A DNA stretch of 28,540 nucleotides from a virus, in IMG/VR virus record IMGVR_UViG_3300012263_000013, positions 1 through 28,540 of that record; one strand, 5' to 3'. Position 1 is the first letter of the stretch, and every line of letters begins with the position of its first letter. A program made the position numbers and the translations under genes. This document shows positions 695-22,051 of the stretch, piece by piece. Under the pieces are notes generated by a model, which was given only the letters and a program-made list of their open reading frames with translations, made no database searches and was not told the origin of the DNA.

Positions 695-771
695 TGGTAC
701 CGGCTCTTGGGATTGAACCAAGGACCTCCAGTTCCACAAACTAGCGCTCTAACCAACTGAGCTAAACCGGC
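695..771 (-). tRNA. tRNA-His(GTG), alphaproteobacterial type without G-1
   Basis: A complete cloverleaf: acceptor GCCGGTT/AGCCGGT, D arm GCTC/GAGC, anticodon loop TTGTGGA (anticodon GTG), T arm CTTGG-TTCAATC-CCAAG, encoded CCA. Most bacterial tRNA-His have an extra G at -1 opposite C73. Here position -1 is T, the discriminator is A73 and the first pair is G1-U72. That is the state reported for Caulobacter and related alphaproteobacteria, whose divergent HisRS reads the anticodon, U72 and A73. It therefore suggests a host of that group. Its 5' end overlaps the stop of the next gene upstream by 10 nt. Confidence 0.93.
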
Positions 772-1315: not shown

Positions 1316-1390
1316 TGGTGTGCCGGATGGGATTCGAACCCATGACCTTCGGTTTAAGAGACCGCTGCTCTACCGCTGAGCTACCGGCGC
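1316..1390 (-). tRNA. tRNA-Lys(CTT)
   Basis: Acceptor GCGCCGG/CCGGCAC with one C2-A71 mismatch, D arm GCTC/GAGC, anticodon loop CTCTTAA (anticodon CTT, codon AAG), T arm ATGGG-TTCGAAT-CCCAT, encoded CCA. The same acceptor mismatch occurs in the second tRNA-Lys at 6860-6934, suggesting the two arose by duplication. Confidence 0.9.
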
Positions 1391-1394
1391 ATAT

Positions 1395-1498
1395 TGGTGG
1401 AGAGAAATGGAATCGAACCACTGACACCAGGCTCTTGCCCGTGCTCTACCTCAACAAATTCGTTCTGCAGAACTCCTTCGTCTCTGAGCTACCTCTCC
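1395..1498 (-). pseudogene. tRNA-like gene with a 39-nt D loop and a 4-nt anticodon loop
   Basis: The acceptor stem (GGAGAGG/TCTCTCC), T arm (AGTGG-TTCGATT-CCATT), A73 and CCA are all intact. The D stem GCTC/GAGC encloses 39 nt instead of 7-11, including the palindrome GTTCTGCAGAAC. The anticodon stem CGGGC/GCCTG closes only the 4-nt loop AAGA, with no T33 and no readable anticodon. It cannot be an ordinary decoding tRNA; it is either a decaying gene or a tRNA-like RNA with another use. It starts five bases after tRNA-Lys(CTT) in the array. Confidence 0.7.
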
Positions 1499-1519
1499 GT
1501 AATTTCTATCCAACGTCAT

Positions 1520-1588
1520 TACTGCAACAGGAATCGAACCCGTTTTTCTAGCTGACTGCTAGCGTCCTATCCAGTAGACGATACAGAA
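1520..1588 (-). pseudogene. Degenerate tRNA-like gene (Glu/Asp-like D arm), no CCA
   Basis: It has a D arm of the Glu/Asp kind (TC-GTCT...GGAC) and a good T arm (ACGGG-TTCGATT-CCTGT). The acceptor TTCTGTA/TGCAGTA has one mismatch, there is no encoded CCA, and the anticodon arm is short: CTAGC/GCTAG closes the 5-nt loop AGTCA. Read with a 4-bp stem, the loop CAGTCAG would show GTC (Asp), but position 33 would be A instead of T. Probably non-functional in decoding. Confidence 0.6.
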
Positions 1589-1589
1589 T

Positions 1590-1711
1590 CTGCATACAAC
1601 CTCTCAACGAAGTGGTTGTATGCAGGACCTTGGATAAGGCAGTCGTTGCTGCCTAAGCTTGCTATCCTAGTCTTTAAACCAGGAAGGAAGTTAATCTTTC
1701 TCGCAAGCTAT
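1590..1711 (-). ncRNA. Structured non-coding stretch between two degenerate tRNAs
   Basis: No ORF. The minus strand folds into a perfect 12-bp hairpin (1590-1601 with 1614-1625), a GGCAG/CTGCC hairpin nested in a GGATA/TATCC pairing, and an alternative AGCTTGC/GCAAGCT pairing. The 12-bp hairpin ends two bases from the 5' end of the tRNA-like gene at 1588, so it could be a processing signal. It might be the remains of further tRNAs or a stable phage RNA. Confidence 0.4.
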
Positions 1712-1792
1712 TGTTGGACTAGGATGGACTTGAACCAACGACCTCCCACGCGACAAAGCATAGGCGCTCTTCCAATCTGAGCTACGTAGTCC
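1712..1792 (-). pseudogene. Degenerate tRNA-like gene, anticodon unclear
   Basis: Acceptor GGACTAC/CTAGTCC has a C7-C66 mismatch, there is one extra base before the D arm (GCTC/GAGC), and the T arm GTTGG-TTCAAGT-CCATC has a mismatch. The 3' end reads ACA instead of CCA. The anticodon stem closes an 8-nt loop (CTTTGTCG), in which TTG or GTC could be read. Several small defects together suggest a decaying gene. Confidence 0.6.
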
Positions 1793-1802
1793 GTAATAAA
1801 AT

Positions 1803-2021
1803 TTACTGTTCCTTATCGCATTCGCCAACCCATGCAAGCTCTCCGGTATTAGGGCAAAACAATGCATAGCCTCGGCTAATGGATTCTTGCGTCATTGTTT
1901 CCAAAGTTTCTGTCGCTGTTTTCAAGAATTCTTGATGTACTACTGCAACAACAAAAAAGATCATCGCAACTGACAAGAGTATAAACATCACAGCTAGTAG
2001 GGCTCCGTCGTGTTTTGGCAA
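1803..2021 (-). CDS. Small membrane protein, 72 aa (TTG start)
   Basis: One N-terminal membrane segment (about residues 8-28, ALLAVMFILLSVAMIFFVVA) is followed by a polar region ending FCPNTGELAWVGECDKEQ with two cysteines. I use the TTG at 2021 because AAAGGA sits 8 nt ahead of it; the first ATG would cut into the membrane segment. Likely an inner-membrane protein of unknown role, just downstream of the macro-domain gene. Confidence 0.55.
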   Translation of the reverse strand: MPKHDGALLAVMFILLSVAMIFFVVAVVHQEFLKTATETLETMTQESISRGYALFCPNTGELAWVGECDKEQ

Positions 2022-2033
2022 TATTTTATTCCT

Positions 2034-2483
2034 TTAATAAATGTACACAACCGGTTTTACATTGGTGAATTCACTCTCAATAATGGTAGCAATAACATTC
2101 CAATTGCCGCCACCCAGGCCAGCGCCAATCTGCGGCATTGCAACATGAGAATGGCCCCTGCATTCGCAAAATTCATTGATGTTGCGCATTGCATCGGATA
2201 CTGCATCGTAGCTAACGTATCGCTTTTTTTCGCCGCCATAGAACTGCTGTGTAATTGCATTGATCAAAACTTTGTCGTTTTCTTCTACAGGAATAATACA
2301 GCCCATTGCAAGACCAATAGTAATTGCAGCATACTGGTTTAAATATGCATTGTACGCCAACGGAAAGTCGTCTCGTACAATCTTTGCCACGCCACTACCC
2401 ATAACACCTTGTGCATTGCAGCCGTGTGCAAGCACTTTGATATCAGTTTTAAACATGTCGCCGTTTCGATATTCAATCTTCAT
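2034..2483 (-). CDS. Macro-domain protein (ADP-ribose binding/hydrolysis), 149 aa
   Basis: A single macro domain fills the protein. The N-terminal GDMFKTDIKVLAHGCNAQG and GVMGSGVA match the first ADP-ribose loop (with the conserved Asn). AMPQIGAGLGGGNW (about residues 114-127) is the second phosphate-binding loop. Members bind or hydrolyse ADP-ribose, ADP-ribose-1''-phosphate or ADP-ribosylated proteins. In a phage this could clear tRNA-splicing-type metabolites, reverse ADP-ribosylation, or counter NAD-derived defence signals; the sequence does not say which. Its start lies inside the end of the upstream 57-aa gene (11-nt overlap). Confidence 0.88.
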   Translation of the reverse strand: MKIEYRNGDMFKTDIKVLAHGCNAQGVMGSGVAKIVRDDFPLAYNAYLNQYAAITIGLAMGCIIPVEENDKVLINAITQQFYGGEKKRYVSYDAVSDAMRNINEFCECRGHSHVAMPQIGAGLGGGNWNVIATIIESEFTNVKPVVYIY

Positions 2484-2646
2484 TGTTGATCTCTTTTATA
2501 ATTTTGGTGACTTTATTCCAAGATTCGATTGTTGGGAGGCCAACTGGCAATTCATCCAATCCTAATTTTGCAAGGCTCTCTGAAGATGTTTTATCCCATG
2601 CTCTGAGCTGTTCTGAAAATTCTTCTGAAATAACAATCTTAGCCAT
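2473..2646 (-). CDS. Small hypothetical protein, 57 aa
   Basis: Reads MAKIVISEEFSEQLRAWDKT... and ends ...KIIKEINNED. It is the first gene after a consensus promoter (2679-2707) and overlaps the macro-domain start by 11 nt, which supports co-translation. Acidic and helical; no family recognised. Confidence 0.6.
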   Translation of the reverse strand: MAKIVISEEFSEQLRAWDKTSSESLAKLGLDELPVGLPTIESWNKVTKIIKEINNED

Positions 2647-2678
2647 TGTAACGTCCCTGTTTGTTGTGTTGTGTAACT

Positions 2679-2707
2679 ATATTAGCAGACTAATACAGTA
2701 CTGTCAA
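2679..2707 (-). promoter_or_regulatory. sigma70-type promoter, TTGACA-17-TAATAT
   Basis: TTGACA at 2707-2702 and TAATAT at 2684-2679, spacer 17. It begins 6 bp after the stop of the 333-aa gene and drives the macro-domain unit. Confidence 0.8.
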
Positions 2708-2712
2708 GCATG

Positions 2713-3714
2713 TTAATGATGTTCAACCTCGTATTCGTCAATAATCTTGGTGATTCCGTTAACCAAGAACCGATACGCATCATGATCTTGACCTTGACTT
2801 CCTTCGTGAAGCCCTGGGATCCATGCTTTTCGGGTACTATCCATAAATCTTTCAATGCAATTTCCTACCAACGCCAGTTGCAACAATTCAAGTACCCGGT
2901 TGGTATCGCCTGCTGCATATGCATCACTTACTTTAGATCGTAGACGAAATATGTCAAGCTCGGTGCCGGCACCATAGCGACGAAATGTGTTTTTAAGTGG
3001 GTGCGAAGAATTTTGGTCTAGTACTATACCATCACTAAATCCACCATTATCCACGGTCCTAAGAATACTTTTTACCTTGGCAATTTTTTCTACATCGACT
3101 GTTTTGTCAGTAACCCATTTTTCTACAAATTCTTCATCTGTGAGATTTTCATCTGACCAACACTTATTTTCAAAATAACTTTCAATAAAGCTGGGTAATG
3201 TTTCTGCTAGCTGTGCATAGGTTACATCACGATCATAATCTTCAGTGGGATCAAGTCCTTTTCCCTTGCCGGTGTATTGATCAAATTTATAGTTAGACCA
3301 CAGATCGTCTACAAAGTCTTTGCGCATCATTACATAGTTGATTTCACAAGGCGGCATTGATCCGTATTCTTTGGCAAAAAGTCTGCGTTCGTGCGTGGCC
3401 TCAAAGAACAAGTCGATGTCAAAATTATCACGTTTGACTGCAATATCATGAACCTCATTGTCGCCAACCTCAGTTTCGACTAGTATCTCTTTGATTCCAG
3501 CAAGAATTAGAGGCAGTGCCACGCCAGAGGCATTGGTGCCACCACCGTAGTCGTCGTATTCTGCTACAAACGGAGTAAGCACAGGTTTCCATAATGCTGA
3601 ACTTTTGCAGAAACTGGAATCAGTGCCGTTTTCCATAAGCGGAAATACGTAGACTTCTTCGCCTTCGAAAATTGGTAGATTGGTTAGTCCGCATGTTTTA
3701 TTCCAGCATCCCAT
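2713..3714 (-). CDS. Conserved hypothetical protein, MGCWN/CGxTNLPI type, 333 aa
   Basis: The N-terminus MGCWNKTCGLTNLPIFEGEEVYVFPL is a pattern I know from uncharacterised phage and bacterial proteins. The two cysteines separated by CGLTNLPI may bind metal. The rest is acidic with no membrane segment and no catalytic motif I can place. The start is a clear ATG two bases upstream of the stop of the preceding small ORF. Function unknown. Confidence 0.75.
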   Translation of the reverse strand: MGCWNKTCGLTNLPIFEGEEVYVFPLMENGTDSSFCKSSALWKPVLTPFVAEYDDYGGGTNASGVALPLILAGIKEILVETEVGDNEVHDIAVKRDNFDIDLFFEATHERRLFAKEYGSMPPCEINYVMMRKDFVDDLWSNYKFDQYTGKGKGLDPTEDYDRDVTYAQLAETLPSFIESYFENKCWSDENLTDEEFVEKWVTDKTVDVEKIAKVKSILRTVDNGGFSDGIVLDQNSSHPLKNTFRRYGAGTELDIFRLRSKVSDAYAAGDTNRVLELLQLALVGNCIERFMDSTRKAWIPGLHEGSQGQDHDAYRFLVNGITKIIDEYEVEHH

Positions 3715-3715
3715 A

Positions 3716-3826
3716 TTATAACTCTTTTTCCTGTTTCAATGTTTTTGCAGTTTCTAGCATTTCGATGGTTTCTGTAATAAACTCTTTGATTATTAATAAA
3801 CAATGTGCCGCCTTGTGGATGTACAA
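3716..3826 (-). CDS. Possible 36-aa protein (TTG start)
   Basis: An open frame fills the gap between the YqeY-like gene and the 333-aa gene. A TTG preceded by AGGGAAG gives MYIHKAAHCLLIIKEF and a basic/acidic helix ending KTLKQEKEL. Its stop overlaps the start region of the next gene by spacing of one base. Support is the ribosome site and tight packing only. Confidence 0.4.
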   Translation of the reverse strand: MYIHKAAHCLLIIKEFITETIEMLETAKTLKQEKEL

Positions 3827-3841
3827 ATACTCTTCCCTGTG

Positions 3842-4213
3842 TTAGCAAAGTGTGCGAACCAATGCCATATCAGCACTGGTACCAAACTCTGATTTTACAG
3901 CTTTCATCACTTGTCCGATGTTGCCGCCGGATTGCAGAATTGGCTCAATCACAGCTCGCAGTTGTAGCTCAGTTGCCATAGCAGGAAGATACTTGGAAAG
4001 GATTGCGATCTCTTGTGGATCAGCAAACTTGTTCTCCTTTAGCTTCTGCACAGCTTTCTTGACATACTGGACTGCTTCGTCAGCGGAGGTTTCTCGGGTA
4101 TTATCATTCTTGCCAATTTTCTGAATTTCATCTAAGTGAAACACCATTACACTTGCAAGTGGATTCTTTTCCTTGCGCATTACAAGTACATCAGTTTTGA
4201 ATAGTTCGAGCAT
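3842..4213 (-). CDS. GatB/YqeY-domain protein, 123 aa
   Basis: Matches the YqeY-like helical domain: an N-terminal K/D-rich helix, an AVQYVKKAVQKLKENKFADPQEIAILSKYLP core, then a small domain GGNIGQVMKAVKSEFGTSADMALV that resembles the C-terminal tail domain of GatB. Family members bind tRNA in the amidotransferase context; YqeY itself has no assigned role. Here it lies directly downstream of a tRNA-like cluster and its promoter, which may be a hint of a tRNA-related task. About 20 residues shorter than bacterial YqeY. Confidence 0.75.
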   Translation of the reverse strand: MLELFKTDVLVMRKEKNPLASVMVFHLDEIQKIGKNDNTRETSADEAVQYVKKAVQKLKENKFADPQEIAILSKYLPAMATELQLRAVIEPILQSGGNIGQVMKAVKSEFGTSADMALVRTLC

Positions 4214-4228
4214 TGTATTTCTTTCTAA

Positions 4229-4367
4229 ATAATGTTTAATAAGCTGGCAGCATTTGCTGACTGCATTTCCTCAGTCTTGGTGTCCTTCCAGATTAGACGA
4301 CTAGTAGGATTTGAACCCAATTTCCAACGTCAAGGTGTCCTTCTATTAGACGACAGCTTACTAAAAC
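4229..4367 (-). pseudogene. Two tandem degenerate tRNA-like units
   Basis: Two diverged copies share GTCGTCTAAT, then GAAGGACACC, GAC and GGAAAT in the same order, i.e. a Glu/Asp-type D arm plus anticodon region. The upstream copy still has a T arm (TTGGG-TTCAAAT-CCTAC). The downstream copy does not, and ends in small hairpins (CAGCA/TGCTG and GACTG/CAGTC). Neither has a matching acceptor stem, a proper anticodon loop or CCA. I read this as a tandem duplication of a tRNA gene followed by decay. Confidence 0.5.
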
Positions 4368-4396
4368 AACGTACTATGTCTATACTAGTATGTCAA
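4368..4396 (-). promoter_or_regulatory. sigma70-type promoter, TTGACA-17-TACGTT
   Basis: TTGACA at 4396-4391 overlaps the stop region of the SGNH gene; TACGTT at 4373-4368, spacer 17. The -10 is weaker than in the other promoters. It would transcribe the tRNA-like units and the YqeY-like gene. Confidence 0.6.
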
Positions 4397-5103
4397 CTAA
4401 TTTTTATGCCTCGTTGTATTAAATCCTCAGCAATTTTTTCTGCGGCAGCAGCGTTGGTCTTGATCCCTGGGTGTGCTAGGTCTCTTGCGTGATCAACGTT
4501 TTTAAATGGAGTAATTCCAGCATGGTCACTGAAGAAACTCCCTTCGCAATATAACGTTTTGTTTCTCCATAATGCTCGATCGGCCATCATATAAAATTCC
4601 GACGTACCTTGCCAATTGTGCCTAGCACAATACCCAGGAGACTGAGGCAAGTAACAGCATATAAATCCAGGTTTGGAGATATTGCTATATCGATGTGGCC
4701 CAGTCCAAATTTGCACGATTGCTTTTGGGTGCGGATAGTGTTCGTGCAGAATAAGAGAATTCCAAGAACTAACGTCAATTGCACTTCCTGCAATTCCTAG
4801 ATTAACTGTAGGAATGTTTAGAAGTTTTTCCAGCTGCGAACAAACAGTATCCTCGTTGGCCAGGCCAATTCCGTACACATTTGAACATCCTAGCACAACT
4901 ATGGAATTTTTCCAATCTGTGCTGGCAAACTCGCCGTGTCGAAATCCTTCCTGATTTTGACTATATGAGATTTTTTTGTTTTGATAAACCCAGTCTTTTC
5001 CTAGTCTTTTCTTATTTTTTTTAAAAAGTTTTTCGGTGTCGGTTGGACTGAAATTTTTAGAAATTGCCTGTTCGAGGCCCCGATTTGATATTAATCTTTG
5101 CAT
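4393..5103 (-). CDS. SGNH/GDSL-type hydrolase-like protein, 236 aa
   Basis: The middle has VVLGCSNVYGIGL (about residues 67-79, block I with the candidate nucleophile Ser), followed by VNLGIAGSAIDVSSWN (block II/III, Gly and Asn). Near the C-terminus is DHARDLAHPGIKTN (DxxH-type block V). Such enzymes deacylate or deacetylate carbohydrates and lipids. The first ~60 residues are basic and unrecognised. I start at the ATG at 5103 (MQRLISNRG); a longer in-frame ATG at 5175 reads through low-complexity repeats (CACCGGAT twice). The ribosome site is weak at both. Confidence 0.7.
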   Translation of the reverse strand: MQRLISNRGLEQAISKNFSPTDTEKLFKKNKKRLGKDWVYQNKKISYSQNQEGFRHGEFASTDWKNSIVVLGCSNVYGIGLANEDTVCSQLEKLLNIPTVNLGIAGSAIDVSSWNSLILHEHYPHPKAIVQIWTGPHRYSNISKPGFICCYLPQSPGYCARHNWQGTSEFYMMADRALWRNKTLYCEGSFFSDHAGITPFKNVDHARDLAHPGIKTNAAAAEKIAEDLIQRGIKIS

Positions 5104-5227
5104 AACAGTATTTATTATATTATCTATGCAGGACACTAGTCTGCTTACCATCCGGTGCCTATCCGGTGCATCCATTCACAGTGGGAAGTTACCCGGTCTG
5201 CTTCACAGCTTATGCTAATAGACAATT

Positions 5228-5304
5228 TGGTGCACACGGAAGGATTTGAACCTCCGACACCTGGTTCTTCAAACCAGTGCTCCACCAGACTGAGCTACGT
5301 GTGC
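5228..5304 (-). tRNA. tRNA-Phe(GAA)
   Basis: Complete cloverleaf: acceptor GCACACG/CGTGTGC, anticodon stem CTGGT/ACCAG with loop TTGAAGA (anticodon GAA), T arm GGAGG-TTCAAAT-CCTTC, A73 and CCA. Confidence 0.95.
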
Positions 5305-5310
5305 GTTATT

Positions 5311-5387
5311 TGGTGCTCTTGGTAGGACTCGAACCTACAACCAACGGATTCGAAATCCGGTACTCTATCCAATTGAGCTACAAAAGC
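5311..5387 (-). tRNA. tRNA-Arg(TCG)
   Basis: Acceptor GCTTTTG/CAAGAGC, anticodon loop TTTCGAA (anticodon TCG, codon CGA), T arm GTAGG-TTCGAGT-CCTAC, A73 and CCA. One C27-T43 mismatch in the anticodon stem. Confidence 0.92.
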
Positions 5388-5393
5388 AGTATT

Positions 5394-5479
5394 TGGTGAG
5401 TCGCCTTGGAATCGAACCAAGCATGGGCTCTCACCCGGAGGATTTACAATCCCCTGCCCCACCTTAGAGCATGCGACAC
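5394..5479 (-). tRNA. tRNA-Tyr(GTA)
   Basis: A class II tRNA with the expected long variable arm. Acceptor GTGTCGC/GCGACTC (one T-T mismatch), anticodon loop TTGTAAA (anticodon GTA), T arm CTTGG-TTCGATT-CCAAG, CCA encoded. Confidence 0.92.
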
Positions 5480-5499
5480 ATTATTCTGTGTAATTATTA

Positions 5500-5730
5500 T
5501 TAAATGTAAACGTTTACGTCGCCTATCAGGGTTAAACAAGAAACTGGAAAAGTCTTATATTCAACAGTTTTGTTAGAAATCCATACGCACTCGCAAATGT
5601 TGTTAACGATGTTTTGCACAAGCATATTAGGACCTCCGCTGTTTAACATGACCGCTGCACCCGCTATAATAGGCAAACTAGGCTCTATTCGTTTGCGTAC
5701 TAGTCTAAGGTCGTTTTTGTTAAATTCCAT
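5500..5730 (-). CDS. YodC-like (DUF2158-type) small protein, 76 aa
   Basis: Contains VMLNSGGPNMLVQNI followed by CECVWISNKTVEYKTFP and a C-terminal LIGDVNVYI. This matches the pattern of the small YodC/DUF2158 proteins (V.L.SGGP.M.V ... C.WF ... F ... L). Function unknown. I use the ATG at 5730 after an AGGA ribosome site instead of the longer upstream start. It lies between tRNA-Tyr and a decayed tRNA region. Confidence 0.65.
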   Translation of the reverse strand: MEFNKNDLRLVRKRIEPSLPIIAGAAVMLNSGGPNMLVQNIVNNICECVWISNKTVEYKTFPVSCLTLIGDVNVYI

Positions 5731-5952
5731 TTTAATCCTATTACACAAATTGGGTGTGTGGTTGGCTCAACGCTACAGCGGCGCGATTTAACCAGTCAGC
5801 CATAACTGGTACCGTTATTCAGCCGGAAAATTCTTGGATGCGCCCGGATTCGCATATCTTTGGTAGTCGAGGTGGGTCATTTGCATTAGCCCCAACCATT
5901 CCACATTTTCGTGTTGACGTTGATATCATTTTCAACACAATATACCGAAACT
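5731..5952 (-). other. Non-coding stretch with a tRNA 3'-end remnant and hairpins
   Basis: No ORF. At 5861-5877 there is a tRNA 3' end (T-stem strand CCCAC, acceptor strand CTCGACT, A, CCA) that matches the one at 5953-5969 in 16 of 17 bases. Other visible structure on the minus strand: ACCAGT/ACTGGT and CGCT/AGCG hairpins near 5770-5815, and GTGTTGA/TCAACAC at about 5912-5939. This looks like debris of duplicated tRNA genes, though a small structured RNA is possible. Confidence 0.45.
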
Positions 5953-6043
5953 TGGTAGTCGCGGTGGGTATTGAACCCACTACCTCTCTTTATTGGTGCT
6001 ACAGGAAGGTAACGCTCCTTCTACCACTCAGTTATCAGCTGAG
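5953..6043 (-). pseudogene. tRNA-Ile(GAT) 3' part with expanded variable region, 5' part missing
   Basis: A perfect anticodon arm CTCAG-CTGATAA-CTGAG (anticodon GAT), a T arm GTGGG-TTCAATA-CCCAC, acceptor strand CGCGACT, A73 and CCA are all present. The variable region is about 46 nt and contains a GAAGG/CCTTC hairpin. Upstream, where the D arm and 5' acceptor strand should be, lies the end of a homing-endonuclease-like gene whose stop codon falls in the anticodon loop. The gene therefore appears split or truncated by insertion. Confidence 0.65.
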
Positions 6044-6682
6044 GCCCTCACTTTTCGGACTCTGTAACGATTTTATATATTCTTCATTTAGTTTGTCTTC
6101 TGTTAATATCAATACTATTACATTATTCTGTTCACAAACACAAGTTATTTTTTCTTCGTCTTGAATTGCTAAAAAATTGTTTTTTGGATCTAAATAAATG
6201 TCGTAATCTACAAGATAGAAATCAGGAAAGTATTTTTTATTTATATTATACTTAATGTACTTGGGTCTAATCCATTTAATCCCTAGTGTATCTAATATCT
6301 CAGCACATCTTAATTCGTACGTTGATTGCAAGCAAACTTGCTTACCAAAAGAATCGTTATAATAAAATTTTTTACTTCTGCCTGCGCCTTCGCGGTAGCC
6401 TCCAAATCCTTGCTTTTTTGCTAGTCTTGACCTTTCTTCAACTGTTAACGTCGCCGCTCTTCCTGTAACTTTTCTTTTTCCTAATTTAAAGTCTTTTTTA
6501 GATTGCATCGACTGTTTTTTAGTCACTTCGCAAGTAAGTAGTGTTTTACCTTTATTCCATGCTGTTTTACCAGTCATTCCATTTTTGTATATTCTGTTAA
6601 TATTTGAAGGACAGGTTCTTTCATGGTTTGTATGACTATTTTTATTTTTGCATTCTTTACTACAGTGTTGGCATATAAGCAT
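6035..6682 (-). CDS. Putative homing endonuclease with N-terminal zinc finger, 215 aa
   Basis: N-terminus MLICQHCSKECKNKNSHTNH followed by a further Cys gives a C2-H-C type finger. Next is a WNKGK element like the DNA-binding NUMOD3 repeat. The C-terminal part has STYELRCAEILDTLGIKWIRPKYIKYN and YFPDFYLVDYDIYLDPKNN, which resembles a Vsr/PD-(D/E)xK nuclease fold (PDF...D.K). Start at 6682 follows AGGAG at proper spacing. The gene is visibly richer in A+T than its neighbours, and it lies between two unrelated tRNA halves. Typical of a mobile free-standing endonuclease; catalytic residues not certain. Confidence 0.75.
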   Translation of the reverse strand: MLICQHCSKECKNKNSHTNHERTCPSNINRIYKNGMTGKTAWNKGKTLLTCEVTKKQSMQSKKDFKLGKRKVTGRAATLTVEERSRLAKKQGFGGYREGAGRSKKFYYNDSFGKQVCLQSTYELRCAEILDTLGIKWIRPKYIKYNINKKYFPDFYLVDYDIYLDPKNNFLAIQDEEKITCVCEQNNVIVLILTEDKLNEEYIKSLQSPKSEGLS

Positions 6683-6713
6683 AATAGTTCTCCTATGCTT
6701 ATTTAGCATTAAG

Positions 6714-6748
6714 CTCGGCTCGGTGCTCTACTATTGAGCTAATTGACC
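6714..6748 (-). pseudogene. 5' half of a tRNA gene
   Basis: GGTCAAT-TA-GCTC-AATAGTA-GAGC followed by CCGAG gives an acceptor 5' strand, D arm and the start of an anticodon stem, then stops. No matching 3' half (ATTGACC) is present nearby. The remaining acceptor of the tRNA-Ile fragment could pair only at the four outer positions. It lies just upstream of the endonuclease gene and probably marks the insertion edge. Confidence 0.55.
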
Positions 6749-6753
6749 ATATT

Positions 6754-6858
6754 CATTGTTTAAAAGATGTACTATCTGGCCAGTACGAGCAAACCTGCAG
6801 GCAACGTCTGGCGCGCCTTGTGAAATCGAATCACATCTAGTACATCACTAAAACAATG
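6754..6858 (-). ncRNA. 105-nt tRNA-sized structured element with long terminal stem
   Basis: The ends (6754-6774 and 6838-6858) are 21-nt inverted repeats matching at 17 positions, with all four mismatches together as one internal loop. Inside, the minus strand has a T-arm-like hairpin TGTGA-TTCGATT-TCACA and a second stem GCCAG/CTGGC with a GC-rich interior. It starts one base after the CCA of tRNA-Lys(TTT). No ORF. It resembles neither an intact tRNA nor a known RNA I can name. Confidence 0.5.
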
Positions 6859-6859
6859 T

Positions 6860-6934
6860 TGGTGTGCCGGGAGGGGATCGAACCCACGACCTTGGAATTA
6901 AAAGTTCCTTGCTCTACCTCTGAGCTACCGGCGC
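6860..6934 (-). tRNA. tRNA-Lys(TTT)
   Basis: Acceptor GCGCCGG/CCGGCAC with the same C2-A71 mismatch as the other tRNA-Lys, anticodon stem AGGAA/TTCCA with loop CTTTTAA (anticodon TTT), T arm GTGGG-TTCGATC-CCCTC, A73 and CCA. Confidence 0.92.
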
Positions 6935-7007
6935 ATTTGTTTATCACGATGCTTGTGTTTGTGTTTTTGTTTCATTGTATTCTCTTTCTGCTTGTGTGTA
7001 AGCTTAT

Positions 7008-7036
7008 GTTGTAACATGCATACACGATGTTGTCAA
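7008..7036 (-). promoter_or_regulatory. sigma70-type promoter, TTGACA-17-TACAAC
   Basis: TTGACA at 7036-7031, TACAAC at 7013-7008, spacer 17, placed between tRNA-Glu and tRNA-Lys(TTT). It should drive tRNA-Lys, the structured element and the endonuclease gene. Confidence 0.65.
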
Positions 7037-7051
7037 TAGTTATAGTGGAAG

Positions 7052-7127
7052 TGGAAGCGCCAACAGGAGTTGAACCCGTCTCTCCAGGGCGAAAACCTAG
7101 TATCCTAAACCGATAGACGATGGCGCC
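7052..7127 (-). tRNA. tRNA-Glu(TTC)
   Basis: Acceptor GGCGCCA/TGGCGCT with a G1-U72 pair, D arm of Glu type (TC-GTCT...GGAT), anticodon stem CTAGG/CCTGG with loop TTTTCGC (anticodon TTC), T arm ACGGG-TTCAACT-CCTGT, CCA encoded. The discriminator is T73 instead of the usual G. Confidence 0.92.
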
Positions 7128-7132
7128 TTATT

Positions 7133-7209
7133 TGGTGGTGCATCGTGGATTCGAACCACGCACCTTACCGTTATGAGCGGTATACTCTAACCCAATGAGC
7201 TAATGCACC
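7133..7209 (-). tRNA. tRNA with CAT anticodon (elongator Met or Ile2)
   Basis: Perfect cloverleaf: acceptor GGTGCAT/ATGCACC, D arm GCTC/GAGT, anticodon stem TACCG/CGGTA with loop CTCATAA, T arm CGTGG-TTCGAAT-CCACG, A73, CCA. It lacks the GGG/CCC anticodon stem of initiators. A CAT tRNA is either elongator Met or the minor tRNA-Ile whose C34 is turned into lysidine by TilS. The C5-G68 pair is as in tRNA-Ile2, and the phage encodes a TilS-like protein, so Ile2 is a real option. Confidence 0.92.
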
Positions 7210-7214
7210 AAAAT

Positions 7215-7303
7215 TGGAATTCAAGGTCGGAATCGAACCGACGTAAGACTAACTACTGTCCACGGATTTGCAATCCGTTGCATAACCATTCTGCCACTTG
7301 AAT
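7215..7303 (-). tRNA. tRNA-Cys(GCA) with a 19-nt variable arm
   Basis: Perfect acceptor ATTCAAG/CTTGAAT, discriminator T73 (the Cys identity base), anticodon stem ACGGA/TCCGT with loop TTGCAAA (anticodon GCA), T arm GTCGG-TTCGATT-CCGAC, CCA encoded. The variable region is 19 nt (GGACAGTAGTTAGTCTTAC, able to form a GAC/GTC stem), whereas ordinary tRNA-Cys has 4-5 nt. Confidence 0.9.
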
Positions 7304-11788: not shown

Positions 11789-12007
11789 TTATGTCTCTCT
11801 GATTGCACTAAGTAGATTTTCAACACTACTGTAACACGGCCTTGATGCTACGTCAACTTCTAATTTGTCATGACTGTTTTCTATTGCTAAAACTCGCGGA
11901 TCTTTTGTTTGCTGGGAAAACTCAGCAAAGTATTGGTCTGTTGAAATGTACGATTTCATAGAGTTTATGAAGTCTACGAACTCTTCGTATTCAAAGTCTT
12001 TATCCAT
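11789..12007 (-). CDS. Hypothetical protein, 72 aa
   Basis: Acidic, aromatic-rich N-terminus (MDKDFEYEEFVDFINSMKSYIS) and a helical ending (YSSVENLLSAIRET). Overlaps the TilS-like gene by 8 nt. No family recognised. Confidence 0.6.
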   Translation of the reverse strand: MDKDFEYEEFVDFINSMKSYISTDQYFAEFSQQTKDPRVLAIENSHDKLEVDVASRPCYSSVENLLSAIRET

Positions 12008-12593
12008 CTTGTCTTACCTTTGTTGCAATTGTTTTATGAATGCCCGGATTAATCCGTAGCACATGAGGCATCATTGTGTGTCTAATATAGTTTCTACTAT
12101 AGCATGTATCTTTGTTGCTGTCATCCTCGATGTGTGGCACATTGTGCATTGCTGCCCATAATTCTAGATCTCTCTTGCGATTGAGTCTAAATGGACGTAA
12201 GACATTTCCTCGTGTACGTGGAATAATTTTGCCTGTGCCGTGTATGCTGCTGAACAGCCAAGTTTCTACACAATCATCTAGGTGATGACATGTGATAATT
12301 GGCATATCAGTAAACCTGTCAAAAAACTTGTATCTTCGTGTTCTCCACTCTGCTTCCTTATTAGACACAGGCACATCTAATTCTTGTACACATGGATACC
12401 AATCAATGTCTCTTGTACGGCAATACTCGGATAAAAACCGATAAGCCGTATCTCCATGCGGGGTGCCGTGATGATAGTGCAACACTGTTACTTTGTGATT
12501 TCGACGCAGAAAGTCTAGTGCTGCCATACTATCAATTCCGCCAGAGCATGCTAGATAAATATCTCGAGGAAGTTTGCCTTGCAACTTGATCAT
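12000..12593 (-). CDS. tilS: TilS-like tRNA(Ile)-lysidine synthase, N-terminal domain only, 197 aa
   Basis: An N-type ATP pyrophosphatase: ACSGGIDSMAALDFL (about residues 16-30) is the PP-loop SGGxDS. ITCHHLDDCVETWLF matches the HHxDDQxET motif of TilS. PRTRGNVLRPF and YSRNYIRHTMMPHV match the conserved PL/R...RNxIRxxxxP segment. TilS adds lysine to C34 of the CAT tRNA-Ile so that it reads AUA. The C-terminal tRNA-binding domains of bacterial enzymes are missing; short N-domain-only forms exist. The phage's own CAT tRNA at 7133-7209 is a possible substrate. Cytoplasmic; in the middle of the long hypothetical operon. Confidence 0.88.
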   Translation of the reverse strand: MIKLQGKLPRDIYLACSGGIDSMAALDFLRRNHKVTVLHYHHGTPHGDTAYRFLSEYCRTRDIDWYPCVQELDVPVSNKEAEWRTRRYKFFDRFTDMPIITCHHLDDCVETWLFSSIHGTGKIIPRTRGNVLRPFRLNRKRDLELWAAMHNVPHIEDDSNKDTCYSRNYIRHTMMPHVLRINPGIHKTIATKVRQDG

Positions 12594-16502: not shown

Positions 16503-17189
16503 TTATTTGACTTCAGGAAATAGGCAATCTTGTACAAAAGCTGTAACATCATCCTCACTGAGTCCGAGACTTGTCATTGTTTTTGGAGTGTGGGGGTTTT
16601 GCTTTTGATAGTGTGCATATTTGTTTTGTGCAGATTTGATCTCGTCGTGGTCTCCGGCAAAGTTATAATCACCAATTAGGTCCAAATATGAAAAAATACT
16701 ATCTGTACTTAATTGAACTATTTGCTCAAGCTCTTCTGTCTTCTGTACGTTTCCTGCTGCAATCATATGTTCGCTGAAAATAGCTTCTGCCCACTTAGGA
16801 AGTGCTCTTTTCTTTTTCCATTCTAGTGCTGCTGCTTCATCTCCAAACGCTTCTATCATGTCGTGTGCTGGATCAATGGTTGCAGAATAGTCATGAAAGA
16901 ATCCTGTAATTTTATTCTTACCTGCAATAACGTCTAGGCCAAAGATAGGCCCATTGTTGTGCAGGTGAGGAAAAATACAACAATGCATCATCCATAACCC
17001 TTTGGTTTCTCTTGCATCGACTACATCTATGTGGGCACGGCGATATTTTTCTCCAGTCCACACTTGATTGATCCACCCTGGTTGATTGAACTTGGCCATG
17101 CCTGGTTCAAATATTTCTGTACCGGATTGCTCAAAGCTTCTAGTCAGTTCTTGTTGTATTCCTAATAGTGCAGTCCATACCTTACTCAT
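16503..17189 (-). CDS. pcyX: Ferredoxin-dependent bilin reductase, PcyX type, 228 aa
   Basis: Members reduce biliverdin IXalpha with electrons from ferredoxin. Family marks: HCCIFPHLHNNGPIFGLDVIAG (H69, D86), KNKITGFFHDYSA, PKWAEAIFSEH, and the C-terminal TSLG...FVQDCLFPEV. PcyA uses an Asp-His-Glu triad; here the Asp (D86) and His (H69) are kept but the Glu position (RAHIDVV, D55) is Asp. That substitution was reported for PcyX, a viral enzyme that makes phycoerythrobilin. The gene overlaps the heme oxygenase stop by 8 nt, so the two are translationally coupled and likely act in sequence. No ferredoxin is encoded in the window; the host's is probably used. Confidence 0.92.
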   Translation of the reverse strand: MSKVWTALLGIQQELTRSFEQSGTEIFEPGMAKFNQPGWINQVWTGEKYRRAHIDVVDARETKGLWMMHCCIFPHLHNNGPIFGLDVIAGKNKITGFFHDYSATIDPAHDMIEAFGDEAAALEWKKKRALPKWAEAIFSEHMIAAGNVQKTEELEQIVQLSTDSIFSYLDLIGDYNFAGDHDEIKSAQNKYAHYQKQNPHTPKTMTSLGLSEDDVTAFVQDCLFPEVK

Positions 17190-17712
17190 TGCTTAGTTCC
17201 ATGAATAGTTGTATAGCAAACTGAAAACACCGATTTGCTTCGTCTGCCATATCTTCAGACAACCTTGCGCGTACAGTTGTCTTTAGTTCTTCTACATTGT
17301 CGAACTTGTACATCTTACCACTGCCTGGATTTCGCTTGGAGATTATCTGGCCTCCATACATGTCGCCAAAGTGGCGCACATAGACGTGGGCAAGAATGTC
17401 AATAGGGTTTGTTAGTGCTTCGACGTAGTTAATGTATTCGGCTACAACGTTACATACTACTGGCGCGCTGAGTTTATATAACTTATTAAGCTCTTCGATG
17501 TCATCATGAATACTGCTGCTTCTACAAATCTCTTCGATGCCGGTTAGTACCCCGCGTTTTGTGGCATAATATTCCAATGCAACGTAGATGTGATATTGGT
17601 TAAACAGGTATTTGTGATATTCATCAGGGGTCATGCCCGCAAGTAATTTGCGAGCATGTGCTGTACGTTCAGCATCTTGGTGGTATTTCCACGTAAGATC
17701 TTTTAGGCTCAT
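17182..17712 (-). CDS. ho: Heme oxygenase (biliverdin-forming), 176 aa
   Basis: Opens heme to biliverdin IXalpha, CO and Fe(II). LTWKYHQDAERTAHARKLL carries the proximal heme-ligand His (H11) in the usual H..AE context. The distal helix is HFGDMYGGQIISKR, matching GDxxGGQxxxK. EYHKYLFNQYHIYVALE fits the helix between them. About 176 aa, shorter than cyanobacterial HO-1 (~240), as in other compact bacterial and phage forms. Overlaps ClpS by one base and PcyX by 8 nt. Product should feed the next enzyme. Cytoplasmic. Confidence 0.93.
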   Translation of the reverse strand: MSLKDLTWKYHQDAERTAHARKLLAGMTPDEYHKYLFNQYHIYVALEYYATKRGVLTGIEEICRSSSIHDDIEELNKLYKLSAPVVCNVVAEYINYVEALTNPIDILAHVYVRHFGDMYGGQIISKRNPGSGKMYKFDNVEELKTTVRARLSEDMADEANRCFQFAIQLFMELSNE

Positions 17713-20293: not shown

Positions 20294-21109
20294 TTAGAAG
20301 TTAAAGCTTACACCTGCTGCAATGTCCGAATCTGTGGAGTTGATGTTGTAAGCAACTTCGCTCCACAATTCAATAGTATTGAACATCATGCTTGCGCCTG
20401 CGCCTACATAATCCACCAAGTCGGTGTCAGATGATCCACCTGCAAACCCAGCAATATCAACGGTTGCCATGGACCATCCAATCATGGCTTCGTATCCAAC
20501 CGCGTCTGTTGTGCTTGAATAAGTTGCAACTGCGCCTGTGTTCAGTTGGTTGAACGAGCCGTTAACTTCGGCGGCAATTGCAAAGTCGTTGCTTACGTTT
20601 TGATAGTCGAGTACAACAGCAACGTTTTGTGCAAGCATTACAGCTGGTGTAAAGTATGCTGCAACCTGGATGTTGGTCCAATTGTCAGTCACATTGTCAT
20701 ATCCAACATATGCTGCGCCCGATGATGCACTAGCAATCAACGAATATTCTCCACTAGTTGGATTCGCAAGCGCGTCTCCGCCGAGTTCGCGCATAAGTGA
20801 ACCGGTGAACAAGTCTTTCTGCTTACCAGCAGTGGCAGCAACAGCACCAAAATCAACACCAATATACCATTTGGCTAGTTCAACTTCTTCCGAATCTGGA
20901 AAGTCTGTAAACAACAACTCGCCGCCTACTAGCATGTCAACTGTTGGTGTAATACCGAAGCTAAAGTCAGCAGTTGCGTCCATTGCAAATACTGTGTCTG
21001 CGTTTCCGGATTTTGTAGCAAATGTGTCAAGTGTGGCGCTTGTTCCTTGAGCAGATGCCGATGTTCCGATGGCCATAGTGGCAATTGTAGTTAAGAGTAG
21101 TGTACGCAT
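20294..21109 (-). CDS. Outer-membrane beta-barrel (porin-like) protein with signal peptide, 271 aa
   Basis: The start at 21109 gives a textbook signal peptide, MRTLLLTTIATMAIGTSASAQ, with a probable cleavage after SAQ or SASA. The mature part is Ser/Ala/Thr/Asp-rich with alternating hydrophobic residues and strand pairs typical of barrels. It ends IAAGVSFNF, a terminal Phe as in the BAM-recognised beta signal. The family is close in style to alphaproteobacterial porins. A phage-made barrel could block its own receptor from re-infection, change permeability or replace a host porin; which one is unknown. Own promoter, leader hairpin and terminator: a stand-alone, probably strongly expressed gene. 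Confidence 0.85.
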   Translation of the reverse strand: MRTLLLTTIATMAIGTSASAQGTSATLDTFATKSGNADTVFAMDATADFSFGITPTVDMLVGGELLFTDFPDSEEVELAKWYIGVDFGAVAATAGKQKDLFTGSLMRELGGDALANPTSGEYSLIASASSGAAYVGYDNVTDNWTNIQVAAYFTPAVMLAQNVAVVLDYQNVSNDFAIAAEVNGSFNQLNTGAVATYSSTTDAVGYEAMIGWSMATVDIAGFAGGSSDTDLVDYVGAGASMMFNTIELWSEVAYNINSTDSDIAAGVSFNF

Positions 21110-21142
21110 ATTGAATTCCTTTTGGTTATGCATTGTAACGTA

Positions 21143-21165
21143 GGAGCAATACTGATTATTGCTCC
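21143..21165 (-). promoter_or_regulatory. Hairpin in the 5' leader of the porin-like mRNA
   Basis: A 9-bp stem GGAGCAATA/TATTGCTCC with a 5-nt loop, a few bases after the predicted start of transcription. Probably protects the mRNA 5' end. Confidence 0.6.
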
Positions 21166-21177
21166 TTAACAATACTA

Positions 21178-21630: not shown

Positions 21631-22016
21631 GAGCAACTTTTCTATTACTAGGTAAGTTGTCAACCCTAGTAGCCCAATTTAGGCTGCAAGTGAGGAGATT
21701 CTGTTGCTACGCTCTCCCCGGGCGCCAGTGAATTAAGCCGCTAGGGCCATTTCCACAGTGTTTGCATTATCGGTTGCATTTAGTAGTTTGATCGCATTAA
21801 CCGAGCTTAAATCCGGGTATCCTAATAATTGTTTTTCCTGCACGTCGATCCTATTTATCGCCCGTAACGTTCATCATTTAGTTGTTTACAAGCACTACCT
21901 TGAAGATGTCAATCACCCGTCTAAACTTTTGGTGGACGATCTGGGTACCGCCCCCAGGTCCGTTTCATTTATTACAATCATCAATAATGCAACAACCGAT
22001 TACTCTCTGCTGCATG
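21631..22016 (-). ncRNA. ssrA: Circularly permuted (two-piece) tmRNA
   Basis: The 3' piece comes first: T-arm-like stem CTGGG/CCCAG (21957-21941), acceptor strand ATCGTCC, A, CCA ending at 21930. After a 66-nt spacer the 5' piece starts at 21863 with GGGCGAT...GGATCGACG, like the tmRNA 5' end. GGGCGAT pairs fully with ATCGTCC and gives the G3-U70 pair that AlaRS needs. ACAATTAT in the 5' piece pairs with ATGATTGT in the 3' piece (helix P2). The tag frame ends ...ALAA-TAA. Permuted ssrA genes are typical of alphaproteobacteria. tmRNA frees stalled ribosomes and tags the peptide for proteolysis. The exact ends are estimated from promoter and terminator. Confidence 0.9.
21733..21777 (-). CDS. 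tmRNA proteolysis tag frame (ATDNANTVEMALAA)
   Basis: Within the tmRNA coding piece the frame reads ATDNANTVEMALAA and TAA, resembling alphaproteobacterial tags and ending in the ALAA degron read by ClpXP/ClpAP. It is not a free-standing gene: it is translated after the ribosome switches onto tmRNA. The exact resume codon (this GCA or one before) is not certain. Confidence 0.8.
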   Translation of the reverse strand, partial: ATDNANTVEMALAA

Positions 22017-22022
22017 TATATA

Positions 22023-22051
22023 TTTATACACTATAACGTGCGAAGTGTCAA
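22023..22051 (-). promoter_or_regulatory. sigma70-type promoter of the tmRNA, TTGACA-17-TATAAA
   Basis: TTGACA at 22051-22046 and TATAAA at 22028-22023, spacer 17. Transcription would begin near 22016, just ahead of a hairpin (TGCAGCA/TGTTGCA) that opens the acceptor piece. Confidence 0.85.

What the first reader, a model, noticed from the sequence alone, without database searches (positions are those of the whole stretch)
695..771. tRNA-His without G-1: a host fingerprint
Seen: position -1 is T, A73, G1-U72. Established: this unusual tRNA-His is known from the alphaproteobacterial group that includes Caulobacter, with a divergent HisRS that reads the anticodon, A73 and U72. A phage tRNA must fit its host's synthetase, so it narrows the host to that subgroup and argues against cyanobacteria or gammaproteobacteria.
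Basis: partly seen in the sequence, partly recalled or inferred. Interest (0 to 1): 0.72.

Follow-up and report, generated by a model that had tools for sequence, protein, structure and literature searches.

The report
Phage histidine tRNA of alphaproteobacterial type
A giant phage carries a histidine tRNA built to the unusual rules used by many alphaproteobacteria, which is a good but not exclusive clue to its host; following it up showed that the same rules hold across another bacterial phylum, and that some giant phages of such hosts carry a second, foreign histidine tRNA together with their own tiny enzyme to charge it.

Summary
Window 771..695 (minus strand) is an intact tRNA-His(GUG) with T at -1, G1:U72, A73 and an encoded CCA. 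The window is 99.95% identical to part of a jumbo phage contig (251 kb, 28 tRNAs, alphaproteobacterial-type tmRNA). No HisRS was found in that contig, so the tRNA should rely on a host enzyme.

Lack of G-1 alone is not diagnostic. U72+A73 is: it forms a discrete class opposite C72+C73 in Alphaproteobacteria, and phages of Agrobacterium, Caulobacter and Sinorhizobium carry it. An alphaproteobacterial host is most likely. But 46 of 48 Hydrogenedentota tRNA-His and two Acidobacteria share the class. Nor must a phage tRNA fit its host's synthetase: Sinorhizobium phage Phosso carries a host-type tRNA-His and also a G-1/C73 tRNA-His beside its own 'mini' HisRS of the standard type.

In 20 distinct relatives that mini-HisRS gene needs a +1 frameshift at (C/G)UU-CAY, i.e. 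at a histidine codon, in an RF2-like setting: a candidate natural 'hungry codon' switch. That side finding lies outside the window and is the most novel result here. The window tRNA itself is a new member of a known kind.

The parts
695..771 (-). tRNA-His(GUG), derived class: G1 at 771, U20a at 751, anticodon GUG 737-735, U72 at 699, A73 at 698, CCA 697-695
   Evidence: Rfam 64.3 bits
772..772 (-). position -1 = T (no templated G-1)
1316..7303 (-). rest of the tRNA array: Lys(CTT) 1316-1390, Rfam tRNA 1398-1498, Asp(GTC) 1519-1588, 4-base-anticodon call 1715-1792, Phe 5228-5304, Arg(TCG) 5311-5387, Tyr 5394-5479, Lys(TTT) 6860-6934, Glu 7052-7127, Met(CAT) 7133-7209, Cys 7215-7303
   Evidence: the 251-kb relative has 28 tRNAs in all
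21689..22048 (-). permuted (two-piece) tmRNA of alphaproteobacterial type; an independent host clue
   Evidence: Rfam RF01849 alpha_tmRNA 111 bits, E 8e-30; ARAGORN tag ATDNANTVEMALAA
16503..17712 (-). ferredoxin-dependent bilin reductase (16503-17189) and heme oxygenase (17182-17712); closest isolate relative of the reductase is in Pelagibacter phage Mosig, 45% identity
   Evidence: Pfam; tblastn; Mosig has the same gene pair

Best explanation
The window holds a functional-looking phage tRNA-His of the derived class (no templated G-1, G1:U72, A73, GUG). It belongs to a jumbo phage that supplies about 28 tRNAs and a tmRNA. During infection it should be charged by the host's divergent, G-1-independent HisRS, which reads the anticodon, A73 and U72, and so keep histidine decoding going. 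The phage brings no HisRS of its own as far as its 251-kb relative shows, so its host should have that enzyme. That makes an alphaproteobacterium of the Rhodobacterales/Rhizobiales/Caulobacterales/SAR11 assemblage most likely; Hydrogenedentota and a few Acidobacteria are possible. Shown: sequence, class, absence of HisRS in the relative, class-host agreement in a few isolates. Inferred: expression, charging, host.
For: Intact tRNA with all named identity elements. Window 99.95% identical over 28,540 b to a 251,140-b and a 101,322-b contig, with 28 tRNAs and a tmRNA. No TIGR00442 HisRS match in either contig, while the search rings in all 14 control genomes. Discrete U72/A73 versus C72/C73 classes in Alphaproteobacteria. 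Sampled HisRS of alphaproteobacterial U72/A73 genomes carry the RNEKPGPGR motif, in line with Gly replacing the ancestral Gln (PMC3937112). Isolates: Atu_ph07, CcrColossus and Phosso copy 2 are U72/A73 (CcrPW has a 98.7% identical gene); Parshik and phage G are G-1/C72/C73. The tmRNA is alphaproteobacterial in type and the bilin reductase is nearest a pelagiphage.
Against: No bacterial genome held carries the same 5' half, so the host lineage is not pinned. NrdB is nearest to jumbo phages of gammaproteobacteria (62%), so the phage lineage itself points elsewhere. The class also occurs in Hydrogenedentota and two Acidobacteria. The 251-kb relative is not known to be complete, so a HisRS could lie outside it. 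No CRISPR-spacer or prophage host evidence was obtained.
Confidence: 0.8

Rival explanations
1. The host is not an alphaproteobacterium but a member of Hydrogenedentota (or of the small acidobacterial group) with the same tRNA-His class; the tmRNA and other alphaproteobacterial features were borrowed.
For: 46 of 48 Hydrogenedentota genomes with a readable match have G1:U72/A73 tRNA-His, 2 have C72/A73, none C73; their acceptor GCCGGGG shares GCCGG with the window's GCCGGTT; the one HisRS checked (L294) has a non-standard motif WRADKPGQWR.
Against: Overall identity is lower: at most 61/74 among those compared, against 65/74 for alphaproteobacteria. The tmRNA is of the alphaproteobacterial permuted type. 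The bilin reductase is nearest a pelagiphage.
Confidence: 0.1
2. The tRNA was acquired from a former alphaproteobacterial host and the present host has a standard HisRS, as argued for phage Melnitz of OM43; the gene is then a passenger or a dual-host tool.
For: Melnitz has SAR11-like tRNAs and tmRNA in a gammaproteobacterial host (PMC9004378). NrdB is nearest to phages of gammaproteobacteria. Some phages carry both tRNA-His classes.
Against: There is no second, G-1/C73 tRNA-His among the 28 tRNAs of the 251-kb relative. The tRNA is undamaged. No isolate of a standard-HisRS host with this class was found.
Confidence: 0.1
3. The gene is an ordinary tRNA-His that drifted at three positions, without meaning for identity or host.
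For: Phage tRNAs do drift; phage CBB has an odd G-1/C72/A73 tRNA-His.
Against: U72 and A73 are coupled in every large sample. In Caulobacter phage CcrColossus U72 and A73 are kept even where the 1:72 pair is lost (U1).
Confidence: 0.03

Closest known systems
tRNA-His of Caulobacter crescentus and the RRCH alphaproteobacteria (PMC9976931, PMC3937112)
   Same: No templated G-1, A73, U72, GUG anticodon; charged in Caulobacter by a divergent HisRS
   Different: 5' half with acceptor GCCGGTT not found in any held bacterial tRNA-His; phage-borne
tRNA-His of Agrobacterium phage Atu_ph07, Caulobacter phages CcrColossus/CcrPW, Sinorhizobium phage Phosso (copy 2)
   Same: U72/A73, no G-1, in large phages
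   Different: Different D arms and acceptor stems; Phosso also has a G-1/C73 copy beside its own HisRS gene
tRNA-His of Hydrogenedentota
   Same: G1:U72, A73, no G-1 in the nine genes read upstream
   Different: Different phylum; HisRS motif WRADKPGQWR rather than RNEKPGPGR
Melnitz, phage of OM43 (PMC9004378)
   Same: Phage with alphaproteobacterial-type tRNAs and two-piece tmRNA
   Different: Its host is a gammaproteobacterium, a warning against reading host from tRNA alone
RF2 (prfB) autoregulatory +1 frameshift (PMC5009743), compared with the side finding in related phages
   Same: Internal Shine-Dalgarno-like hexamer, slip codon CUU, +1 shift into the enzyme frame
   Different: The slow A-site codon is a histidine codon (CAU/CAC), not UGA; the product is a HisRS, not a release factor

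Membership tests
Derived (RRCH-type) bacterial tRNA-His | No templated G at -1 | tested here: met
   T at window 772
Derived (RRCH-type) bacterial tRNA-His | A73 | tested here: met
   window 698
Derived (RRCH-type) bacterial tRNA-His | U72 opposite G1 | tested here: met
   window 699/771
Derived (RRCH-type) bacterial tRNA-His | U20a (needed in transplantation work; from memory of the Caulobacter HisRS study, not read here) | tested here: met
   window 751
Derived (RRCH-type) bacterial tRNA-His | Charged by a divergent, G-1-independent HisRS | not testable with these tools
   host unknown; needs an aminoacylation assay
Standard bacterial tRNA-His | Templated G-1 opposite C73 | tested here: not met
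   T-1, A73
Alphaproteobacterial host (as a claim) | Identity class restricted to that group | tested here: not met
   Hydrogenedentota 46/48 and two Acidobacteria also U72/A73
Alphaproteobacterial host (as a claim) | Other RNA genes agree | tested here: met
   alpha_tmRNA 111 bits
Alphaproteobacterial host (as a claim) | tRNA-Tyr C7/R8 trait reported for RRCH (PMC3937112) | tested here: inconclusive
   phage tRNA-Tyr has C7 and A8, but the ten alphaproteobacterial tRNA-Tyr sampled have U8
RF2-type frameshift (side finding, mini-HisRS genes) | Slip codon CUU with SD-like sequence 3 nt upstream | tested here: inconclusive
   CUU in 13 and GUU in 7 of 20; GGRGG/GGGG core in 11 of 20
RF2-type frameshift (side finding, mini-HisRS genes) | Stop codon in the A site | tested here: not met
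   CAU or CAC in 20 of 20; the next codon is UGA in 13 of 20

The most novel reading that the evidence does not exclude
Phages of hosts with the divergent HisRS meet the histidine problem in two ways. Some, like the window's phage, copy the host's U72/A73 tRNA-His. Others, such as Sinorhizobium phage Phosso and some twenty huge-phage contigs, add a natural orthogonal pair: a G-1/C73 tRNA-His and a catalytic-core-only HisRS of the standard type. That HisRS is made only after a +1 frameshift at (C/G)UU-CAY, so a shortage of charged His-tRNA at a 'hungry' histidine codon switches the enzyme on: an RF2-like autoregulatory switch re-aimed at histidine.
Probability: 0.5. Interest if true: 0.87.

Novelty: new member of a known kind. 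Interest (0 to 1): 0.5.

Why it matters
tRNA-His class is a cheap, mechanistically grounded clue for assigning hosts to uncultured phages, but only if its limits are known. This work shows that U72+A73 is the diagnostic (not loss of G-1), that the class extends to a second phylum, and that a phage can carry both classes. The literature treats the derived tRNA-His/HisRS pair as having likely arisen once in bacteria (PMC3937112), so its presence across Hydrogenedentota reopens its origin. The side finding touches a stated open point: the main review of frameshifting says no example is known of a trans-frame protein made through hungry-codon frameshifting for use in starvation (PMC5009743). It also offers naturally evolved HisRS/tRNA-His pairs that should be orthogonal in alphaproteobacteria, where an E. 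coli pair has been engineered (PMC3875453).

Tried and rejected
- Searching for the same 5' half in 84,980 genomes: none.
- BLAST of the tRNA against isolated phages: only cross-hits to Phe, Asn and Ile tRNAs and to phage G His; generic derived queries gave mostly other tRNAs.
- tRNA-Tyr as a second identity test: one pattern with a wrong gap, one that found no Hydrogenedentota gene; sampled alphaproteobacterial Tyr did not show the trait, so it was not used.
- A faulty tRNA-His pattern, repeated correctly.
- 16S comparison to place the Acidobacteria MAG: only partial genes, not informative.
- Misbinning of the non-alphaproteobacterial hits: rejected for Hydrogenedentota (phylum-wide) and for L208 (1.87-Mb contig); likely for L234, whose genome has an alphaproteobacterial-type HisRS.
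- The N-terminal frame break of the phage HisRS as a sequencing error: rejected, it recurs in 20 distinct sequences including the complete genome of an isolate.

Full report
WHAT IS THERE. The gene at 695-771 (minus strand) is a tRNA-His with anticodon GUG. Read on its own strand it has T at -1, G1 opposite U72, A73 and an encoded CCA, and a U at 20a. The -1 base is inferred from DNA; the mature 5' end was not seen.

WHAT CARRIES IT. The window is a virus record of 28,540 bases. It is 99.95% identical along its whole length to parts of a 251,140-base and a 101,322-base viral contig. The larger one has 28 tRNA genes and a tmRNA, so this is a jumbo phage. Besides tRNAs the window encodes NrdB, glutaredoxin, ClpS, a PP-loop protein, heme oxygenase and a bilin reductase. 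NrdB is nearest to jumbo phages of gammaproteobacteria (62%); the bilin reductase is nearest to Pelagibacter phage Mosig (45%). The tmRNA is of the alphaproteobacterial permuted type (111 bits).

IS THE CLASS REAL. In a pattern scan of viral contigs, 116 tRNA-His genes could be read well. Twenty-two have G1:U72 with A73, whatever the -1 base; nearly all others have C73. Fourteen of these others also lack G at -1 while keeping C72/C73, so absence of G-1 is not by itself the signature. Among 240 alphaproteobacterial genomes the listed matches fall into U72/A73 (about 28 genomes, by my count of a cut list) and C72/C73, with a single U72/G73. This matches the published split between the RRCH clade plus most SAR11 and the other alphaproteobacteria (PMC3937112), and the Caulobacter identity set of anticodon, A73 and U72 (PMC9976931). 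HisRS proteins of sampled alphaproteobacterial U72/A73 genomes carry RNEKPGPGR in motif 2.

HOW SPECIFIC IS IT FOR THE HOST. The best cellular matches to the window gene are Hyphomonadaceae, Hyphomicrobiaceae and Phenylobacterium, 67 of 77 positions. Three exceptions needed checking. One (L234) comes from a genome whose HisRS is of the alphaproteobacterial type and is probably misplaced. The other two look real: an acidobacterium (1.87-Mb contig, L208) and a Hydrogenedentes genome (L189), whose HisRS proteins are about 40% identical to alphaproteobacterial ones with motifs WRADKPAPGR and WRADKPGQWR. A survey of the phylum of the latter found 48 genomes with a readable tRNA-His: 46 are U72/A73, two are C72/A73, none has C73, and nine genes read upstream have T or C, never G, at -1. 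In the acidobacterial class only two of the sampled genomes show it. I found no paper reporting this, in a library that lacks most subscription journals.

WHAT ISOLATED PHAGES SHOW. Agrobacterium phage Atu_ph07 has G1:U72/A73 with T-1; Caulobacter phage CcrColossus keeps U72/A73 although its 1:72 pair is U.U, and CcrPW has a 98.7% identical gene. Erwinia phage Parshik and Bacillus phage G have G-1, C72, C73; Pectobacterium phage CBB has G-1, C72, A73. In this small set U72/A73 follows the host. The window phage's 251-kb relative has no HisRS match, so its tRNA should depend on the host enzyme. Together with the tmRNA this makes an alphaproteobacterial host the best reading.

WHERE THE ARGUMENT LED. 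A wider scan for U72/A73 in viral contigs found two contigs with both classes of tRNA-His and, just downstream, a 188-residue HisRS-like frame. It matches HisRS families (TIGR00442, E 5e-39, though below the full-length cut-off) and has motif 2 CYRYERPQAGRYREF, the Gln type of enzymes that read G-1:C73. The nearest isolate protein is in Sinorhizobium phage Phosso, 76% identical, although its host belongs to the divergent-HisRS clade (Rhizobiales, PMC3937112). Phosso has a G-1/C72/C73 tRNA-His 275 bases before this gene as annotated and a T-1/U72/A73 tRNA-His in its main tRNA array. In several relatives the G-1/C73 tRNA-His lies within 100 bases of the gene. The family keeps the histidine-site motifs RGL.YY and LGAQKQ.AGGG.Y, but is only some 180-210 residues long and so lacks the insertion and anticodon-binding domains. 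An in-frame member is predicted with pLDDT 90 and its closest structures are HisRS proteins. It has no PHROG match. The reading is a phage-borne pair, orthogonal to the host's; charging was not tested.

THE FRAME BREAK. In 20 distinct sequences, Phosso included, the conserved N-terminus (MLRGTR...) lies in a different frame from the rest. In Phosso it starts at ATG 4044 behind AAGGAGG, whereas the annotated start at 4096 is in the other frame. The junction is always (C/G)TT CA(T/C): CTT 13, GTT 7; CAT 15, CAC 5. The codon after the His codon is TGA in 13. The frequency of such hexamers in these loci is 0.0013 per position. A purine-rich, anti-SD-pairing hexamer lies three bases upstream in most, for example AGGGGG TCT CTT CAT TGA in L540; RF2 of E. 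coli has AGGGGG TAT CTT TGA (from my own knowledge; the layout is described in PMC5009743). In one contig (L557) the first site is in frame and the same TGT CTT CAT stands elsewhere in the gene, where skipping the C restores the family sequence VCLIPE. A slip before the His codon, i.e. a hungry His codon in the A site, is favoured because the His codon is invariant, the stop after it is not, and the family residue at the L557 site is I, L, V or R. Some genomes hold in-frame versions (L550, L554, L555, L567, L586, L587). Shown: the conserved frame break and site. Inferred: +1 shifting in vivo, sensing of His-tRNA, charging specificity.

VERDICT. The finding is a correct reading of a new phage member of a known tRNA class. 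Its use as a host fingerprint is good evidence, not proof. The follow-up yields two points worth separate work: the phylum-wide U72/A73 tRNA-His of Hydrogenedentota, and the frameshift-gated mini-HisRS with its own tRNA in giant phages.

Noticed in passing
L560 (Sinorhizobium phage Phosso PV764938) 3746-3820 and 4044-4686; L537-L557: Giant phages encode a catalytic-core-only HisRS of the standard Gln type near a G-1/C73 tRNA-His, although Phosso's host clade uses the divergent HisRS; Phosso also has a U72/A73 tRNA-His at record 429192-429265. Looks like a natural orthogonal pair.
   Followed up: yes
L537-L549, L551-L553, L556, L557, L560, L581, L583 (20 distinct sequences); Phosso record 4122-4127: The mini-HisRS gene has a conserved +1 frame break at (C/G)TT CAY, i.e. 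at a histidine codon, with an RF2-like Shine-Dalgarno hexamer upstream in most: a candidate hungry-codon switch. GenBank annotates the Phosso gene from an out-of-frame ATG.
   Followed up: yes
phylum of G004 (L189, L340-L347); L208, L332: Hydrogenedentota as a phylum (46 of 48 readable genes) and two Acidobacteria have tRNA-His with G1:U72, A73 and no G-1, with HisRS motifs WRADKPGQWR / WRADKPAPGR in the two genomes checked.
   Followed up: partly
L003, L013, L022, L024, L032, L034, L038, L045, L053, L097-L099, L107, L112: Fourteen viral tRNA-His genes have T at -1 but keep G1:C72 and C73, so they lack a templated G-1 within the standard class; host and processing unknown.
   Followed up: no
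window 1715-1792 minus: ARAGORN reads a tRNA with an enlarged anticodon loop and a four-base anticodon (ttgt).
   Followed up: no
window 7215-7303 minus: tRNA-Cys(GCA) of 89 nt with a long variable region; a second, ordinary tRNA-Cys exists in the 251-kb relative.
   Followed up: no
window 1398-1498 minus: Rfam tRNA match (35.8 bits) of about 101 nt, not called by ARAGORN; it may hold an insertion in the D loop.
   Followed up: no
window 12000-12593 and 7133-7209 minus: PP-loop protein (TilS-like) in a phage that also has a tRNA with CAT anticodon; possibly a phage-borne Ile2 (lysidine) pair.
   Followed up: no
window 20294-21172 minus: 292-aa protein with signal-like start and porin-like composition, no Pfam or PHROG match; may be a phage-encoded outer-membrane protein.
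   Followed up: no
window 16503-17712 minus: Heme oxygenase plus bilin reductase cassette; 308 viral stretches encode relatives of the reductase.
   Followed up: partly
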